A stretch of DNA of 5,695 bases, taken from positions 1 through 5,695 of the forward strand of contig JALQWD010000015.1 of assembly GCA_023260175.1 (NCBI GenBank), written 5' to 3'. A program made the translations under genes and the position numbers. Positions 624 through 5,695 of this stretch are shown piece by piece; the first letter of the stretch is position 1; every line of letters begins with the position of its first letter. The DNA comes from Candidatus Nanopelagicaceae bacterium (lineage in GTDB: Bacteria > Actinomycetota > Actinomycetes > Nanopelagicales > Nanopelagicaceae). The notes under the pieces are model-generated. The model was not told where the DNA came from. It saw only the letters and a program-made list of their open reading frames with translations, and made no database searches.

Positions 624-1763
624 ATGAAAACAAAGAAGTTTTTTGGCGCGATTGCAGTTGCTGCAACTTCAGCATTGGTACTTAGTGGAACTGCAACTTC
701 TTATGCAGCTCCAAAGCCAGCATCGAAGGCAACTGTTGGAGCTGATTGCACAGAAGCCGCAGCCGCAAAAGGAACTACCGCGCCAGGCAAAGGCGTTGAT
801 GGCACTGACCTAACATGCATGGTTGTCACAACCGGAACTCTAAAAGGTCAAACAAAGTGGTGGTATAAAGATGTTAAGCCAATTTCTAAGCTCGAATGGG
901 TAGCTTCTTCAGGTGTTGGTGGTGGCTATGGCACAACTGCAATTGCATTTGCTGATGCCATGAAAGCTGAAGGCATGCTTAGTGATTACACCGTTTCATA
1001 CAAGTCTGGTGGTTCAGGAACTGTAGGTCTTGGCTACTTCCAAGATCAGAAGAATCGTTCAGATGTTGCATTTATTAATGGCTTTGCGATGGTCGCAGGT
1101 GTTGCATCAACAAAGTCAAAGTTAAAGCTTGGCGATAACACACAAATTTCAGGCTTGATGCGTGAATGGGAAGCAATTGTGGTTCCTGCTTCATCTAAGT
1201 ACCGCACCATTAATCAACTATTAGATGACATCAAGGCAGATCCAAAGAGCATGCCAATTGCTGGTGGTTCAAAGGGAACTGTTGACCATGTATTCATGGG
1301 TCTATTAGTTGAGAAAGTTGGAGTTGAAGCAACTGCGATGAATTATGTTCCTTATGCAGGTGGCGGAGAAGTTACAACTTCTGTACTTTCAAAGCAAACT
1401 GTTGCTGGCGTTTCAGGAACCTCTGAATTTGCATCATATGTAAAGGCTGGAAAGCTACGAGTTCTTGCGCTTTCATCAGCCAAGCCACTTGCTTCAATCA
1501 AGGGTAAGACTTTGATTCAGCAGGGAATTGATATGACCTTCGGTAACTGGCGTGGTTTTGATACATCTGGCTCAATGTCGCCAGCTGATCGCCTTAACTT
1601 CGCAAAGGTTGCAGATGTTGTACGTGCAGGTAATGCATGGAAAGCAACTTTGAAGGCAAAAGATTGGACAGATCTTGAGTTCCGTGGAAATGACTTCAAG
1701 TCATTTATCACAGAGCAGACAACTTCAATCACCAAGCTACTTGTAAGCCTTGGTCTTGCTTAA
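624..1763 (+). CDS. tctC: Tripartite tricarboxylate transporter substrate-binding protein (TctC family)
   Basis: This 379-residue secreted protein should capture a carboxylate-type solute outside the membrane and deliver it to the TctA/TctB channel. Residues 1-28 form a signal peptide: basic MKTKK, a hydrophobic stretch, then a likely cleavage site after SYA. There is no lipobox cysteine, so lipid anchoring is not indicated. Residues about 40-82 form an extra small module with the protein's only two cysteines (Cys42, Cys65) and a WW pair at 79-80, probably joined by a disulfide. The TctC fold follows from about residue 88, with GVGGGYGTTA (97-106) where the family has its glycine-rich ligand loop, the segment VVPASSKYRTINQLL and the GGSKGTVDH and NYVPYAGGGEV motifs. 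The ATG start has a weak purine-rich ribosome site (611-620). It leads the operon, with tctB starting directly after its stop. The ligand cannot be told; citrate is only the founding example of the family. Confidence 0.9.
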   Translation: MKTKKFFGAIAVAATSALVLSGTATSYAAPKPASKATVGADCTEAAAAKGTTAPGKGVDGTDLTCMVVTTGTLKGQTKWWYKDVKPISKLEWVASSGVGGGYGTTAIAFADAMKAEGMLSDYTVSYKSGGSGTVGLGYFQDQKNRSDVAFINGFAMVAGVASTKSKLKLGDNTQISGLMREWEAIVVPASSKYRTINQLLDDIKADPKSMPIAGGSKGTVDHVFMGLLVEKVGVEATAMNYVPYAGGGEVTTSVLSKQTVAGVSGTSEFASYVKAGKLRVLALSSAKPLASIKGKTLIQQGIDMTFGNWRGFDTSGSMSPADRLNFAKVADVVRAGNAWKATLKAKDWTDLEFRGNDFKSFITEQTTSITKLLVSLGLA

Positions 1764-2258
1764 TTGAAAAAAATCTCTAAAGAGGCAGTGGGAGAGCTCG
1801 CATTTGCGGGCTCTCTTCTGCTGCTTGGCTTAATAGTATTAATTGATACCAAGAACATGGAAGTGCCGCCAGGATCTGGCAGCGTGGGACCTCAAGTTTT
1901 CCCAACCATTATCGGAATCTTTATTGTTTTAGTTTCATTATTTTTGGCAACTGAAGTTTTACGTGGAAACTATGGCCAACCTGAAGGTACCGAATTCGGT
2001 GAAATCAAATCAGAGACTGATTTCAAAACTTTAGGAACGGTGAGTGCATCCATTCTTACCTACCCATTCTTAATTGAACGTGCCGGTTTCGTAATCGCAT
2101 CTACCGTAGTTTTCTTCGGCGTTGGATTTGCATATGGTGCTCGCAAATTAATTAAGAATTTAGCTATTGCACTAATTTTCGCCCTGGTGGTCTATTTAAC
2201 TTTCACAAAGTTATTGAGCGTTGAATTGCCAGCCGGAATTTTGAAGGGGATTCTATGA
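1764..2258 (+). CDS. tctB: Tripartite tricarboxylate transporter small membrane subunit (TctB family)
   Basis: This 164-residue membrane protein is the small, poorly conserved partner of TctA in a secondary solute transporter driven by an ion gradient. It starts with a short basic segment (MKKISKE). Hydrophobic segments lie near residues 11-27, 44-64, 88-105, 107-124 and 129-150. Family marks are GSVGPQVFPTIIG (39-51) after the first helix, the RAGF motif (106-109), and the C-terminal FTKLLSVELPAGIL. The start is a TTG that directly follows the TAA of tctC (TAATTG) with no clear Shine-Dalgarno sequence, so translation probably depends on ribosomes finishing tctC. The alternative GTG at 1788 would cut into the first helix and has a badly spaced purine run. 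The gene overlaps tctA by 4 nt (ATGA). Size, motifs and position between tctC and tctA agree. Confidence 0.88.
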   Translation: MKKISKEAVGELAFAGSLLLLGLIVLIDTKNMEVPPGSGSVGPQVFPTIIGIFIVLVSLFLATEVLRGNYGQPEGTEFGEIKSETDFKTLGTVSASILTYPFLIERAGFVIASTVVFFGVGFAYGARKLIKNLAIALIFALVVYLTFTKLLSVELPAGILKGIL

Positions 2259-3763
2259 ACAACGTAGAGTCGCTATTACAAGGTTTTGCAAGCGCGCTAA
2301 CTTTGACCAACTTAATGTTTGGTCTATTGGGTACATTTTTAGGAACTCTAGTTGGAGTTCTACCAGGTATTGGTCCGGCGCTAGCAATTGCGCTGCTGCT
2401 ACCGATTACTTATTCCATTAATCCTGCATCTGCTCTGATTATGTTCGCCGCTATTTATTACGGTGCAATGTATGGCGGATCAACAACCTCAATTTTATTA
2501 AACACTCCTGGCGAATCCGGTTCAGTTATTACTGCGCTTGAAGGCCATCAGATGGCAAAACGTGGTCGCGCTGGCGCTGCACTTGCAACAGCTGCGATAG
2601 GTTCATTCGTAGCCGGAACAATTGCTACGGCGGTATTAGCTTTCGCAGCACCATCGCTGGCAAACGTGGCAATTTCAGTGACAGCCGCTGATTATTTCGC
2701 GCTGATGCTGGTTGCTTTTATGACAGTCGGATCCCTACTTGGCTCATCAATGATTCGTGGCATGGTTTCACTTTCTGTCGGTTTAGCACTTGGTTTAGTT
2801 GGTTCCGATCTTCAATCAGGCGCAGTTCGTTTAACATTCGGTAATTTGCACGCAATCGATGGCATCGAAACAGTTACGGTAATCGTTTCTATCTTTGCTC
2901 TTGGTGAAGCTTTATACATTGCAGGTCGTGCAAAGGAGAGCGGTTGGTCGCTTATCCAAATGCAAGGTAAAGCACTAATGACTCGCGAAGATTGGAAGCG
3001 ATCATGGAAGCCATGGTTACGTGGCACCGGTATCGGTTTCCCTCTTGGCATCATGCCGGCAGGCGGATCAGAAGTTCCGACATTCTTAAGTTATTCAGTT
3101 GAGAAGAATTTATCTAAGAATAAAGATGAATTCGGTAAAGGTGCAATCGAAGGCGTTGCTGGTCCAGAAGCAGCAAATAATGCGAATGCTGCCGGTGCGC
3201 TAGTTCCGCTACTTGCACTTGGTCTGCCAACTTCCGCAACCGCTGCCGTTATCTTGGTTGCATTCCAAACTTACAACATTCAGACAGGTCCATTGCTATT
3301 TGCAACAAATCCAGATGTAGTTTGGACTTTAATTGCCGCGCTATTTGTGGGTAATACTTTGCTTCTTATTCTCAATCTTCCATTTGTGAAGATTTGGGTT
3401 AAGTTATTAAAGATTCCTAAACCTTATCTCTTTGCAGGTATTACAACATTTGCGCTTATGGGCGCATATGTTGCTAATAATGCGATCTTTGATTTATGGA
3501 TTGCCCTTGGCGTTGCAGTGGTTGGTTATTTCTTCCGTCGATTTGGTGTGCCAATTACGCCACTAATTATCGGTTTGATTCTTGGACCAATGGCTGAACT
3601 TCAGATGCGACGTGCACTGCAAATTAGCGGTGGTGATCCTGCTGCGCTCTTTGCAACACCGCTTTCTAAAGTGCTTTACGCAGTGCTTGCGATAGTGGTT
3701 TTTGCGCCATTTGTATGGCGTGCGATCAAAAAACGCAGTATTAAGTACCCGAAACAGAGTTAA
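2255..3763 (+). CDS. tctA: Tripartite tricarboxylate transporter large membrane subunit (TctA family)
   Basis: This 502-residue polytopic protein is the transport channel of the system and has the usual family length. The N-terminal half carries [17 protein letters not shown] (34-50), [20 protein letters not shown] (68-87) and [15 protein letters not shown] (96-110). The C-terminal half carries the related [16 protein letters not shown] (265-280), then [24 protein letters not shown] (293-310) and [12 protein letters not shown] (320-331). The two PGIGP/PAGGSE motifs reflect the internal two-fold repeat of the family. [15 protein letters not shown] (441-455) is the conserved C-terminal motif, and the protein ends in a basic cytoplasmic tail. 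The ATG overlaps the tctB stop, and AAGGGGA at 2244-2250 gives a good ribosome site 4 nt before it. The PAGGSE and GLPTS versions of the motifs are, from memory, a common TctA subfamily. The family call is secure; the substrate is unknown. Confidence 0.96.
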
Positions 3764-3766
3764 TTA

Positions 3767-4927
3767 ATGGCAGTTGAAGTTTGGGCTAGACGATTATTAA
3801 TTAGCTCTACCTTCACGCAAGCCACGATGTATGTCGTGCGCCCGTTTATCACTTATCGAGCGATCGAAATAGATGCGGGCGCAACGGCAATCGGTTTAAT
3901 TGGTGCAATCTATGCGCTCTTTCCTGTTTTACTTGCACTTAAATTTGGAAGCTGGGTTGGAAAATATGGCGAAGGCAAGTTCTTAGTAGTCGGCACCTTT
4001 TCGTTAATTGCTTCTTGTACCTCTTTGGTATTCACAAATAGCGTTCCAACTTTGGCGATGGCAACTGCCTTTGCTGGCCTTTCGCATCTGGCATTAATGG
4101 TTGGCGGTCAAACCATGGTTGCCTTACGTGCACCAAAATCGGATTACAACAGATTGTTTGGTTACTACACTTTTAGCGCTTCGCTTGGGCATACCTTTGG
4201 TCCGGTGATTGCTGGTCTACTAGCTGGATCACTTGCAAACGGAATGCCTAAACATTCGAACTATGCTTTCTTCTTTGCAATTGCGCTATCAACTATTGCG
4301 CTGATTCCTACTTTTAAGTGGCGCAATAGCGCTCCGACAGTTAAAGCTGCGGAAGAGCAGAGCAATACTTGGGCAGCTGCAAAATCTATGTTGTCACGTA
4401 AAGAGATTTCGCTAGCAGTATTTATCTCAATGGCAATCTCTTCTACTTTAGATTTATTAGTTATCTTCTTGCCATTACTAGGTAAAGAGCGCGCGATTGA
4501 TCCAGCGCTAATTGGATTAATTATCTCTTTACGAGCAGTTGGTTCTATGGGTTCTCGTTTAATTTTAGGAAAAGTTAGCCAGCACATAAGCGATAAGACT
4601 TTGCTTTTATCTACAACCACAGTTTCAATGCTCGCTTGCGTTGGAATGGTTTATACAGATAACGCCGCAATCCTCGGAGCTCTCGTCTTTATCGCCGGTT
4701 TCTCATCAGGATTTGGCCAACCACTCACGATGGCGCTGATTTCTCTGCGCACCAAGGCAGATGAACGAGCACTTGCAGTATCTGCCAGATTGACCGGCAA
4801 TCGCTTGGGCCAATTTGTCCTTCCGGTAGCTGCTGGATTTCTAGCGAATGGAGCCGGAGTTGGGGCGGTTTTCTGGTCGATGGCCGCCCTTTTAGGCGCC
4901 AGCTTGGTCGCATCTGCGGCGGAATGA
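3767..4927 (+). CDS. Major facilitator superfamily permease
   Basis: This 386-residue protein is almost entirely hydrophobic and has about twelve predicted membrane helices in two halves. A charged cytoplasmic loop (about residues 185-213) separates the halves. The helix 2-3 loop carries a degenerate MFS motif A (GSWVGKYGEGKF, 61-72), and its counterpart in the second half is MGSRLILGKVSQHISDK (261-277). GHTFGPVIAGLLAG (141-154) resembles motif C of helix 5, which is typical of antiporters. A basic and polar RLTGNRLGQF segment (341-350) begins helix 11. The ATG lies 3 nt after the tctA stop with no strong Shine-Dalgarno sequence, so it is probably translated by coupling and belongs to the same operon. 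It could export a product or counter-substrate of the compound taken up by TctCBA, or act independently. The sequence gives no substrate. The protein ends right after its last helix, which is short but not clearly truncated. Confidence 0.85.
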   Translation: MAVEVWARRLLISSTFTQATMYVVRPFITYRAIEIDAGATAIGLIGAIYALFPVLLALKFGSWVGKYGEGKFLVVGTFSLIASCTSLVFTNSVPTLAMATAFAGLSHLALMVGGQTMVALRAPKSDYNRLFGYYTFSASLGHTFGPVIAGLLAGSLANGMPKHSNYAFFFAIALSTIALIPTFKWRNSAPTVKAAEEQSNTWAAAKSMLSRKEISLAVFISMAISSTLDLLVIFLPLLGKERAIDPALIGLIISLRAVGSMGSRLILGKVSQHISDKTLLLSTTTVSMLACVGMVYTDNAAILGALVFIAGFSSGFGQPLTMALISLRTKADERALAVSARLTGNRLGQFVLPVAAGFLANGAGVGAVFWSMAALLGASLVASAAE

Positions 4928-4944
4928 CCTCGATTTGCCCCGAT

Positions 4945-4973
4945 TTGTTCATATCCACGAGCGTAAATAGAAT
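4945..4973 (+). promoter_or_regulatory. Candidate promoter of infA–rpmJ
   Basis: TTGTTC (4945-4950) and TAGAAT (4968-4973) match -35 and -10 boxes of the main sigma factor at the ideal 17-bp spacing. Transcription would begin near 4980, leaving a leader of about 45 nt before infA. The site lies in the only sizeable gap between the MFS gene and infA, where a promoter is needed if the translation genes are not to depend on the transporter operon. A short direct repeat (CGATTTG at 4931-4937 and 4941-4947) overlaps its upstream edge. Confidence 0.5.
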
Positions 4974-5025
4974 TACTCTTCGCGCCTCAAAGCGGGGCGG
5001 TTCGATTTAGGGACAGGCAGGGGAC

Positions 5026-5247
5026 TTGGCTAAAGAGGGTAGCGCCATCGAAATGGAAGGCGTTGTTGCTGAAGCTTTGCCTAATGCAATGTTCCGAGTT
5101 GAATTATCAAACGGACATAAAGTTCTTGCGCACATCAGTGGCAAGATGCGAAAAAATTATATTCGCATTCTTCCTGCAGACCGTGTGATTGTTGAAATGA
5201 GTCCGTACGACCTAACAAAAGGTCGAATTATTTATCGTTATAAATAA
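5026..5247 (+). CDS. infA: Translation initiation factor IF-1
   Basis: IF-1 binds the A site of the 30S subunit during initiation and works with IF-2 and IF-3. The 73-residue product is a single OB-fold (S1-like) domain of normal length, with the nearly invariant stretch [20 protein letters not shown], then [30 protein letters not shown] and the C-terminal YRYK. The start is a TTG, chosen because it gives the conserved MAK N-terminus; the next in-frame ATG (5053) would remove the first nine residues. The ribosome site is AGGCAGGGGA at 5015-5024, where AGG at 5015-5017 has workable spacing and the GGGG run sits very close to the start. A candidate promoter lies 50-80 nt upstream. rpmJ follows after 39 nt, as in other actinobacteria. 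The identification is certain. Confidence 0.98.
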
Positions 5248-5257
5248 TTAAGAATTA

Positions 5258-5275
5258 TTTATTTCGAGAAATAAG
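5258..5275 (+). promoter_or_regulatory. Small hairpin before the rpmJ ribosome site
   Basis: TTATTT (5259-5264) and AAATAA (5269-5274) form a 6-bp stem closed by a CGAG loop, with a possible extra T·G pair at 5258/5275. It ends exactly where the rpmJ Shine-Dalgarno sequence GAAGGAG (5275-5281) begins. An A/T-only stem is weak. It could tune ribosome access or protect the transcript, but chance is also likely in such an AT-rich spacer. Confidence 0.3.
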
Positions 5276-5286
5276 AAGGAGAACAA

Positions 5287-5400
5287 ATGAAGGTGCAACC
5301 AAGCGTTAAGAAGATCTGCGATAAGTGCAAGGTCATTCGACGCAAAGGACGCGTTATGGTCATTTGCGAAAACCTTCGCCATAAGCAGCGCCAAGGTTAA
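5287..5400 (+). CDS. rpmJ: 50S ribosomal protein L36 (bL36), zinc-binding form
   Basis: This 37-residue protein is a small late-assembling component of the large ribosomal subunit. The translation opens with [14 protein letters not shown] and closes with [11 protein letters not shown], matching the standard L36 over its full length. Cys11, Cys14, Cys27 and His32 are the complete zinc ribbon, so this is the zinc-containing form rather than the cysteine-free paralogue made by some bacteria under zinc shortage. The ATG is preceded by a strong ribosome site GAAGGAG (5275-5281) with a 5-nt spacer. It lies between infA and rpsM in the expected order and is followed by an unusually long 164-nt structured spacer. 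Confidence 0.98.
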
Positions 5401-5421
5401 TTAAATAAATAAAAGTAAATA

Positions 5422-5547
5422 ACGCGAAAAAAAGTACGCGTGATGCGACTTATTAGTTAGATGCAAATCTAATTAGTAAGACCTCTGGTCCGATAGGCCG
5501 GAGATAATGTTGAGAAACATTATGAGCATCGCGGAGGACCTATCGGA
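5422..5547 (+). promoter_or_regulatory. Structured leader RNA upstream of rpsM (four-way junction with loop–tail pairing)
   Basis: The rpmJ–rpsM spacer can fold as follows. P1 is 5442-5446 with 5526-5530 (GATGC/GCATC). P2 is 5449-5462 with 5467-5480, 14 bp with two G·U pairs and a GCAA loop. P3 is 5483-5488 with 5498-5503 (CTCTGG/CCGGAG). P4 is 5504-5511 with 5516-5523, 8 perfect bp and a GAGA loop. The 9-nt P3 loop (5489-5497, TCCGATAGG) is fully complementary to 5539-5547 (CCTATCGGA), six nt before the rpsM ribosome site. The junction linkers are short, and GA (5447-5448) facing GA (5524-5525) could form tandem sheared G·A pairs on P1. A weaker hairpin (5422-5426/5437-5441) abuts P1. G·U pairs and two GNRA loops point to selection on RNA. 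The position suggests control of rpsM translation, possibly by S4 as in the E. coli alpha operon; that ligand is inference. Confidence 0.75.
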
Positions 5548-5552
5548 AACTT

Positions 5553-5558
5553 AAAGGA
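5553..5558 (+). promoter_or_regulatory. rpsM ribosome binding site
   Basis: AAAGGA with a 6-nt spacer to the ATG at 5565 is the functional ribosome site by spacing. A stronger GGAGG at 5533-5537 lies 27 nt before the start with no usable start codon after it. That copy sits between P1 and the pseudoknot strand of the leader RNA, and its GAGG can pair with CCTC at 5482-5485. Confidence 0.7.
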
Positions 5559-5564
5559 ATATAG

Positions 5565-5695
5565 ATGGCACGTCTTGTCGGTGTTGATCTTCCACGCGAA
5601 AAGCGTTTAGAGATCGCACTTACTTATATCTTTGGAATGGGTTTAACGGCGCACCGAAGAAGGACGATAAAAAGAAAGGCGCGGAAGTCGAGGAG
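5565..5695 (+). CDS. rpsM: 30S ribosomal protein S13 (uS13), 5' end only
   Basis: S13 sits in the head of the small subunit and contacts S19, the P-site tRNA and 50S protein L5. The first 26 residues, beginning [14 protein letters not shown] and ending TYIFGMG, match the conserved N-terminus of the family, so the ATG start and identity are firm. After the GMG (codon ending at 5642) the frame stays open to the window edge, but the residues [17 protein letters not shown] bear no likeness to S13, which should continue with a GxGRTRA-type sequence. The gene is therefore genuine to about 5642, and the remaining 53 bases probably come from elsewhere. In the usual actinobacterial order rpsK, rpsD, rpoA and rplQ would follow. 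Expression is probably controlled by the structured leader directly upstream. Confidence 0.9.
5643..5695 (+). other. Non-S13 tail, probable chimeric contig end
   Basis: From about 5642 to the window edge no frame continues S13. A different frame (codons from 5642) reads [18 protein letters not shown], a lysine/acid-rich stretch like the disordered tail of some unrelated protein. Positions 5646-5695 are about 56% GC, clearly above the surrounding genes. A misjoin at the contig edge is the simplest explanation; a real rearrangement inside an essential gene is very unlikely. Confidence 0.7.

What the first reader, a model, noticed from the sequence alone, without database searches (positions are those of the whole stretch)
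5422..5547. Pseudoknotted four-way-junction leader RNA in front of rpsM
The sequence shows four mutually compatible helices packed with 0-2 nt linkers: P1 5442-5446/5526-5530, P2 5449-5462/5467-5480, P3 5483-5488/5498-5503 and P4 5504-5511/5516-5523. Two arms end in GNRA tetraloops (GCAA, GAGA). The complete 9-nt P3 loop is perfectly complementary to 5539-5547, close to the rpsM ribosome site. Established knowledge: in E. coli, S4 represses the alpha operon by binding a pseudoknot at the rpsM start. Inference: this is an autoregulatory r-protein leader of similar role but apparently different architecture. It may be a described or undescribed class.
Basis: partly seen in the sequence, partly recalled or inferred. 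Interest (0 to 1): 0.85.

Follow-up and report, generated by a model that had tools for sequence, protein, structure and literature searches.

The report
Actinomycete rpsM pseudoknot leader RNA
In front of the ribosomal protein gene rpsM lies a folded, pseudoknotted RNA that is conserved in nearly all actinomycetes examined, from tiny freshwater cells to Streptomyces, and that probably lets a ribosomal protein switch off its own production.

Summary
In detail: P1-P4 and the 9-bp loop-tail pseudoknot lie where stated (P1 is longer, 8 bp). Comparative support is strong. On 38 aligned relatives 91% of cells pair, against 75% shuffled and about 41% slid by one column. Loop-tail complementarity, not used in choosing or aligning, beats 1000 of 1000 permutations. 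A constrained scan finds P3 plus pseudoknot before rpsM in 223 of 241 actinomycete sequences, 10 of 241 shuffles and 0 of 39 genomes from the wider phylum. The tail starts 28 nt (sd 2.6) before the start codon while spacer length varies widely. No Rfam 15 match falls on the leader, and the searched open literature describes no actinobacterial rpsM leader. Most likely it is a translational, autoregulatory r-protein leader of a new class. The ligand is open. S4 has precedent, but in 47 operons without rpsD the leader stays at rpsM, and no copy was found at 34 relocated or second rpsD genes. That leans towards S13 or S11, or S4 acting in trans. No binding or regulation was tested.

The parts
5439..5446 (+). 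P1 5' arm (CGTGATGC), pairs with 5526-5533
   Evidence: sequence; centroid fold; 8 pairs, 7 with both-side changes, 98% paired in 38 relatives. Note that the 5' arm was located by its complementarity to the 3' arm, which inflates this figure
5449..5480 (+). P2 hairpin, 14 bp, GCAA loop
   Evidence: outer pairs covary (helix 2; helix 2); length varies between relatives
5481..5482 (+). Conserved unpaired AC just 5' of P3
   Evidence: AC precedes P3 in 212 of the 223 sequences that pass the constrained scan
5483..5503 (+). P3 hairpin, 6 bp, with 9-nt loop 5489-5497 (TCCGATAGG)
   Evidence: 96.5% paired, 5 of 6 pairs with both-side changes
5504..5523 (+). P4 hairpin, 8 bp, GAGA loop (absent in the Microbacterium-type variant)
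   Evidence: helix 5, all 5 counted pairs with both-side changes; missing in the printed spacers of L041, L048 and similar loci
5526..5533 (+). P1 3' arm (GCATCGCG)
   Evidence: as for the P1 5' arm
5537..5538 (+). GA directly before the pseudoknot tail
   Evidence: GA in 169 and CA in 41 of the 223 sequences that pass the constrained scan; the scan itself required the A
5539..5547 (+). Pseudoknot tail (CCTATCGGA), pairs with the whole P3 loop 5489-5497
   Evidence: exact reverse complement; loop-tail coevolution, 0 of 1000 permutations as good in A1 and in A4
5555..5560 (+). Probable Shine-Dalgarno site (AAAGGA) of rpsM
   Evidence: sequence; inference from position before the ATG
5565..5645 (+). 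rpsM (S13) start; the reading frame resembles relatives up to about 5645 only
5287..5400 (+). rpmJ (L36), upstream gene
   Evidence: ORF; same order in relatives by motif
5026..5247 (+). infA (IF-1), upstream gene used to find relatives
   Evidence: ORF; 75-88% identity in the best segment to the 80 loci kept

Best explanation
The element is an autoregulatory ribosomal-protein leader of a class found, so far, only in the Actinomycetes. Shown by comparison: a junction of P1 to P4 (P4 may be missing) presents the P3 loop, which pairs with a tail just 3' of P1, and this pseudoknot sits at a nearly fixed distance, about 28 nt, upstream of the rpsM start codon. Inferred: excess of one r-protein encoded in or with the operon binds the junction and stabilises the pseudoknot. 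The folded RNA at the 5' edge of the ribosome footprint then blocks or stalls 30S loading at rpsM, and so lowers translation of the operon. Ligand ranking (inference): S13 or S11 together about 0.45, S4 about 0.4, something else 0.15.
For: (1) Structure: covariation in P1-P4 and the pseudoknot. (2) Position: R2 has exactly one match (E up to 0.1) in 30 of 40 genomes, each 20-30 nt before the rpsM match, and none in the other 10. R2 was trained on some of these loci, so the telling point is that no second match was listed. (3) Breadth: 223 of 241 rpsM upstreams against 10 of 241 shuffles; outside the window's own order 156 of 167. (4) Coupling to initiation: tail start to ATG 28 nt median, sd 2.6, n=208, while the rpmJ-rpsM spacer has sd 36.8, n=145. 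The finder searched about 14-62 nt and this count kept 18-40 nt; the observed range is 20-35. (5) In the wider phylum 0 of 39 upstreams carry the motif and 33 of the 39 have a spacer of 1-47 nt. (6) Precedent: predicted r-leaders in front of rpsM in Clostridia and Fusobacteriales (PMC7247131 Table 1) and the E. coli S4 pseudoknot (PMC10931766 passage).
Against: No binding, reporter or probing data exist here. No rRNA mimicry was seen: R2 lists nothing else in 40 genomes, though the tool scored only its best candidates (about 103 per genome) and drafts may lack 16S. The leader is absent in a few members (L071 with a 42-nt spacer, L225, L248; L224 looks degenerate), so it is dispensable. A tail that switches between the loop and the Shine-Dalgarno site is not supported: tail-SD pairing is no better than permuted. 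In the broad alignment A4 one measure is modest: pairs with a change on both sides 18 against 15.8, reached by 7 of 500 shuffles.
Confidence: 0.8

Rival explanations
1. S4-specific leader: the RNA is the actinomycete counterpart of the alpha-operon S4 site, and S4 (in cis or in trans) is the only repressor.
For: S4 is the ligand given for both rpsM-operon leaders in Table 1 of PMC7247131 and for the E. coli leader. An rpsD-sized gap lies between rpsK and rpoA in 117 of the 164 loci in which both motifs were found.
Against: In 47 of those 164 operons there is no room for rpsD, yet the leader is there. 42 of 47 pass the constrained scan with the canonical P3. L006, L017 and L040 pass it through another hairpin, but the canonical motif is in the printed spacer. 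L004 is found by model R1 (E 1.2e-7) and L005 by eye with one mismatch in P3. R2 gives only two fragments, E 0.97 and 1.6, upstream of 34 rpsD genes that are relocated (22) or second copies (12). The GUAA noted for S4 leaders is not an evident part of the core.
Confidence: 0.4
2. mRNA-processing or stability element: the fold marks a cleavage or 5'-protection site between infA-rpmJ and rpsM and sets the ratio of the two mRNA parts, without an r-protein ligand.
For: It lies between genes that look like one operon. Compact junction RNAs can shield 5' ends (general knowledge). No sigma-70-type promoter match on the coding strand in window 4900-5695.
Against: A pure stability element need not hold a nearly fixed 28-nt distance to the start codon, nor keep AC before P3 in 212 of 223.
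Confidence: 0.1
3. Anti-Shine-Dalgarno switch: the tail pairs either with the P3 loop (on) or with the rpsM Shine-Dalgarno site (off).
For: Common tails (CCTCC) are complementary to GGAGG; in L003 the tail CTTTC could pair with GAAAG of the SD region.
Against: Tail-SD pairing energy equals permuted controls: -3.38 against -3.53 kcal/mol in 50 distinct close relatives (173 of 200 permutations at least as good) and -5.49 against -5.54 in 130 others (145 of 200). Tail-loop beats all 200 in the same call, but there loop and tail had been picked by complementarity; one search is the unbiased test.
Confidence: 0.07
4. Chance or composition artefact.
For: A 9-nt complement and hairpins can arise in AT-rich spacers.
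Confidence: 0.01

Closest known systems
Alpha operon ribosome binding site of Gammaproteobacteria (S4 leader; Rfam Alpha_RBS, name and accession RF00140 recalled)
   Same: Same gene (rpsM), pseudoknot, presumed translational r-protein feedback
   Different: There the pseudoknot comprises the rpsM ribosome binding site (PMC10931766 passage); here it closes 17 nt before the ATG and leaves SD and start codon outside. Junction of hairpins; no Rfam match on the leader
Clostridia and Fusobacteriales S4 r-leaders (Eckert and Weinberg 2020, PMC7247131; abstract, outline, first part with Table 1, sections 9 and 10 read)
   Same: Upstream of rpsM-rpsK-rpsD-rpoA-rplQ; predicted by covariation
   Different: Other phyla; conserved GUAA or GAAA. 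Table 1 lists no actinobacterial rpsM leader. Their structures are in figures and supplements that I did not see, so the folds were not compared
Mycobacterial rpsO (S15) leader (PMC8470358 and PMC10931766, passages)
   Same: Actinobacterial r-protein mRNA whose pseudoknot, upstream of the start site, is needed for translational autoregulation
   Different: Different gene and ligand; its fold was not compared
Bacillus rpsD S4 leader (PMC10931766 passage)
   Same: r-protein leader for S4
   Different: Sits at rpsD and forms no pseudoknot

Membership tests
Ribosomal leader (r-leader) as a functional kind | Structured RNA in the 5' UTR of an r-protein gene, consistently at that gene | tested here: met
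   position just before rpsM; the transcript itself was not tested
Ribosomal leader (r-leader) as a functional kind | Secondary structure supported by covariation | tested here: met
Ribosomal leader (r-leader) as a functional kind | Binds an r-protein and represses the downstream genes | not testable with these tools
   needs binding and reporter experiments
Gammaproteobacterial alpha-operon leader (Rfam Alpha_RBS) | Reaches the Rfam model of the family | tested here: not met
   no Rfam match on the leader at E up to 5 in the window, up to 0.5 in 8 relatives and up to 1 in 20 relatives. The four listed matches (two in the window, one each in L010 and L228) lie elsewhere, below gathering scores
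Gammaproteobacterial alpha-operon leader (Rfam Alpha_RBS) | Pseudoknot that comprises the rpsM ribosome site | tested here: not met
   tail 5539-5547 ends before AAAGGA 5555-5560 and ATG 5565; tail starts 20-35 nt before ATG in the 208 sequences counted
Gammaproteobacterial alpha-operon leader (Rfam Alpha_RBS) | Ligand S4 | not testable with these tools
   indirect evidence only
S4 r-leaders of Clostridia / Fusobacteriales (Eckert and Weinberg) | Match to their published alignments and structures | not tested
   alignments not held here; no Rfam match on the leader

The most novel reading that the evidence does not exclude
A class-wide, previously undescribed r-leader of Actinomycetes whose ligand is S13 or S11 rather than S4. 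If so, these would be proteins not so far established as the sensor of this operon, and the feedback loop stayed with rpsM-rpsK when rpsD left the operon and a divergent S4 gene elsewhere took over.
Probability: 0.4. Interest if true: 0.85.

Novelty: new variant of a known kind. Interest (0 to 1): 0.74.

Why it matters
PMC8470358 (passage) states that almost no information on r-protein regulation is available for Actinobacteria. If it works as proposed, this RNA controls the S13-S11-(S4)-alpha-L17 operon, RNA polymerase alpha included, in most of a class that holds Streptomyces, mycobacteria and small freshwater actinobacteria. It gives a ready set of natural variants: junctions without P4, pseudoknots from GGAGG/CCTCC to GATAGG/CCTATC, and operons with and without rpsD. 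With them the question of which protein senses ribosome balance can be put to a direct test.

Tried and rejected
Rejected: the anti-Shine-Dalgarno switch; chance. An intrinsic terminator is unlikely: the two terminator-like hits in 4900-5695 are at 4983 and 5208, none in or after the leader. A copy at relocated rpsD was not found. rRNA mimicry was not seen (with the limits told above).

Led nowhere or limited. The viral-contig scan gave 22 loci that entered no analysis. The free hairpin searches have a high background, 88 of 241 shuffles reaching 10; I therefore rely on the constrained scan (shuffles there are of the last 200 nt). Of its 223 passes at least 3 (L006, L017, L040) rest on another hairpin than the canonical one. 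The 73 distinct 24-mers were chosen by complementarity (195 of 241 sequences kept, 46 dropped), so their pairing rates are inflated and are not used as proof. The tests that never used the pseudoknot are helix 4. P1 in A1 is inflated too, because located its 5' arm by complementarity; the structure columns of A1 were picked after looking at pairing; A4 was fitted to the model's structure. The pseudoknot helix scores only 78.6% paired in A1, because loops of 8 and 9 nt are out of register. R2 gave 63 matches in 66 rpsM upstreams at E up to 1: 60 full-length at the expected place, 2 fragments (L255, L277), and 1 elsewhere (L225); L224, L226 and L248 had none. 28 of these 66 had served to build R2. 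R1 found 20 of 197 class genomes with strict filters, being tuned to close relatives.

Literature: ten searches ran. They cover open-licence papers only, so 'undescribed' means not found there and not in Rfam 15. Table S1 of PMC7247131 (35 earlier r-leaders) was not seen. PMC7247131: abstract, outline, first of six parts with Table 1, sections 9 and 10. PMC11109978, PMC10931766, PMC8470358, PMC2965389: passages only. All other papers: search listing only.

Full report
What is in the window. The window carries infA (5026-5247), rpmJ (5287-5400) and the start of rpsM (5565) with a 164-nt spacer. The free energy of 5410-5580 is -52.2 kcal/mol, z -5.6, and none of 200 shuffles reaches it. Loop 5489-5497 and tail 5539-5547 are exact reverse complements; two matches of that 9-mer occur in 1 of 200 shuffles of the window.

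Close relatives. infA as a probe brought 80 loci from named genomes (589 candidates, the best 80 kept). The whole genomes behind some of them led to an order of mostly small-genome actinobacteria. It is probably the freshwater Nanopelagicales group; that name is my inference, since the tool gives none. I read 74 rpsM upstreams: the window, L001, L003, L012, L020 and 69 of the 70 loci L103-L172 (L108 was dropped: its contig starts 66 nt before the rpsM match). L133-L172 were 40 that I picked from the listed matches. 74 of 74 contain the AGGACYT tail motif and a 7-position P1 with at most one mismatch; 63 are distinct. 38 of the 63 were aligned with MAFFT (A1). On A1 91.0% of the cells of P1-P4 plus pseudoknot form standard pairs, against 74.9% after shuffling; 208 cells show changes on both sides against 69.4; 0 of 500 shuffles reach any of the five measures. 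Sliding the partners by one column drops pairing to 41.5-41.7%. P1 is favoured by the way the sequences were cut; P2, P3, P4 and the pseudoknot were not used for that.

The pseudoknot. In A1 the loop was taken from P3 columns and the tail from the AGGAC column, so complementarity was not used to choose them. The own loop-tail duplex averages -10.96 kcal/mol against -6.88 when tails are permuted, with 0 of 1000 permutations as good (23 distinct pairs). In A4, aligned by a model without the pseudoknot (60 of 63 rows used; L225, L255, L277 dropped), it is -11.18 against -8.09 (45 distinct pairs). For the 14 distinct pairs without the common GGAGG end it is -9.69 against -5.06; each has 0 of 1000. 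Examples: GATAGG/CCTATC (window), GACAGG/CCTGTC, GAAAGG/CCTTTC, TGAAAG/CTTTCA, CGGAGG/CCTCCG, CAGAGG/CCTCTG, CGAAGG/CCTTCG, CAACGG/CCGTTG, ACCGGG/CCCGGT, GGCGGG/CCCGCC. Some relatives have one mismatch or one bulged base in this helix.

Breadth. A scan that asks for a 6-bp P3, a loop of 6-11 nt and a pairing tail that follows an A and starts 20-36 nt before the start codon succeeds in 223 of 241 actinomycete rpsM upstreams (74 from the window's order, 167 from outside it, of which 156 pass). It succeeds in 10 of 241 shuffled ones and in 0 of 39 drawn across the phylum. For the last set, one search found rpsM in 148 of 149 genomes; 40 upstreams were fetched from handles not met in my class and order draws, and 39 were readable. 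Of the 18 misses several are faults of extraction or mismatches in P3 (L062 with a wrong start, L151, L156), as the printed spacers show. Apparent real absences are L225 and L248, with L224 degenerate; L071 (42-nt spacer) was too short to scan. In the phylum set 33 of 39 spacers are 1-47 nt, four are 87-197 nt, and two were not measured. R2 finds one weak match, E 0.36, in the 40. The tool does not name classes, so 'Actinomycetes only' rests on how the draws were made. Carriers named and seen include Streptomyces, Kitasatospora, Micromonospora, Mycolicibacterium, Nocardia, Rhodococcus, Corynebacterium, Microbacterium, Cellulomonas, Arthrobacter, Brevibacterium, Nocardioides, Propionibacterium and Glycomyces. 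Microbacterium-type leaders lack P4, giving a three-way junction.

Position and mode of action. The tail starts a median of 28 nt before the ATG (range 20-35, sd 2.6, n=208), while the spacer itself ranges from 42 to 284 nt (sd 36.8, n=145). The 5' part is free to vary; the distance to the start codon is not. This points to translation initiation as the affected step. Pairing of the tail with the Shine-Dalgarno region is no better than in permuted sequences, so I do not propose a tail switch. AC before P3 (212 of 223) and GA or CA before the tail (169 and 41 of 223, the A being required by the scan) are the most constant unpaired positions. They are first candidates for protein contacts; that is inference.

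Which protein. S4 is the ligand by precedent (PMC7247131 and PMC10931766). A natural experiment speaks against the simple form of that idea. The gap between the rpsK and rpoA motifs is bimodal: 292-436 nt in 47 loci and 888-1208 nt in 117, of 164 measured; 12 more could not be measured, the window among them. The loci are related, so these are not independent events. The short gaps leave no room for rpsD. The leader is present in all 47 as far as I can see: 42 by the constrained scan with the canonical P3, three (L006, L017, L040) by eye because the scan preferred another hairpin, L004 by model R1, L005 by eye with one mismatch in P3. Searches give 22 class genomes whose rpsD lies away from rpsM (in one, G257, rpsM was not found; contig breaks were not excluded for every one). 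Upstreams of those 22 and of 12 second rpsD copies give no R2 match beyond two fragments, E 0.97 and 1.6. If S4 were the only sensor, its own gene would have escaped control while its former partners kept it. S13 or S11 fits better; S4 in trans remains possible. I put S13 or S11 at about 0.45 together and S4 at 0.4.

Known or new. No Rfam 15 match falls on the leader in the window or in 28 relatives. Among the 20 new motifs in Table 1 of PMC7247131, leaders before rpsM are given for Clostridia and Fusobacteriales, and for Actinobacteria only L17 and L31 leaders. The ten searches found no report of an actinobacterial rpsM leader. Subscription papers, supplements and preprints were not searched. 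As a kind it is an r-leader; as a structure it is, on this evidence, a new class with its own architecture and an unusually wide spread.

Noticed in passing
window 5646-5695: The rpsM frame resembles relatives to about residue 28 (YIFGMGLT) and then departs; another frame reads [16 protein letters not shown]. The end of the record looks chimeric or misassembled.
   Followed up: partly
L041, L048, L200, L218, L226 and similar loci: P4 is missing: P3 is followed by CACC and directly by the P1 3' arm, giving a three-way-junction variant of the leader (Microbacterium-type; L048 is named Microbacterium).
   Followed up: partly
L284, L287, L288, L289, L307 (upstream of relocated or second rpsD genes): Palindromic AGGCnnnCCTTACCT-like sequences resembling actinobacterial iron boxes (motif recalled) lie before these rpsD genes.
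   Followed up: no
(22 class genomes): Relocated rpsD genes score about 199-218 bits against TIGR01017, operon copies mostly 216-275, as if a divergent S4 paralogue had replaced the operon copy; the ranges touch.
   Followed up: partly
L071, L225, L248; L224 degenerate: Rare actinomycete rpsM genes without a recognisable leader; L071 still has an rpsD-sized gap in the operon.
   Followed up: partly
window 624-3763: Three ORFs in a row look like a tripartite tricarboxylate transporter (binding protein, small and large membrane subunits), followed by an MFS-like ORF 3767-4927; named by eye, not searched.
   Followed up: no
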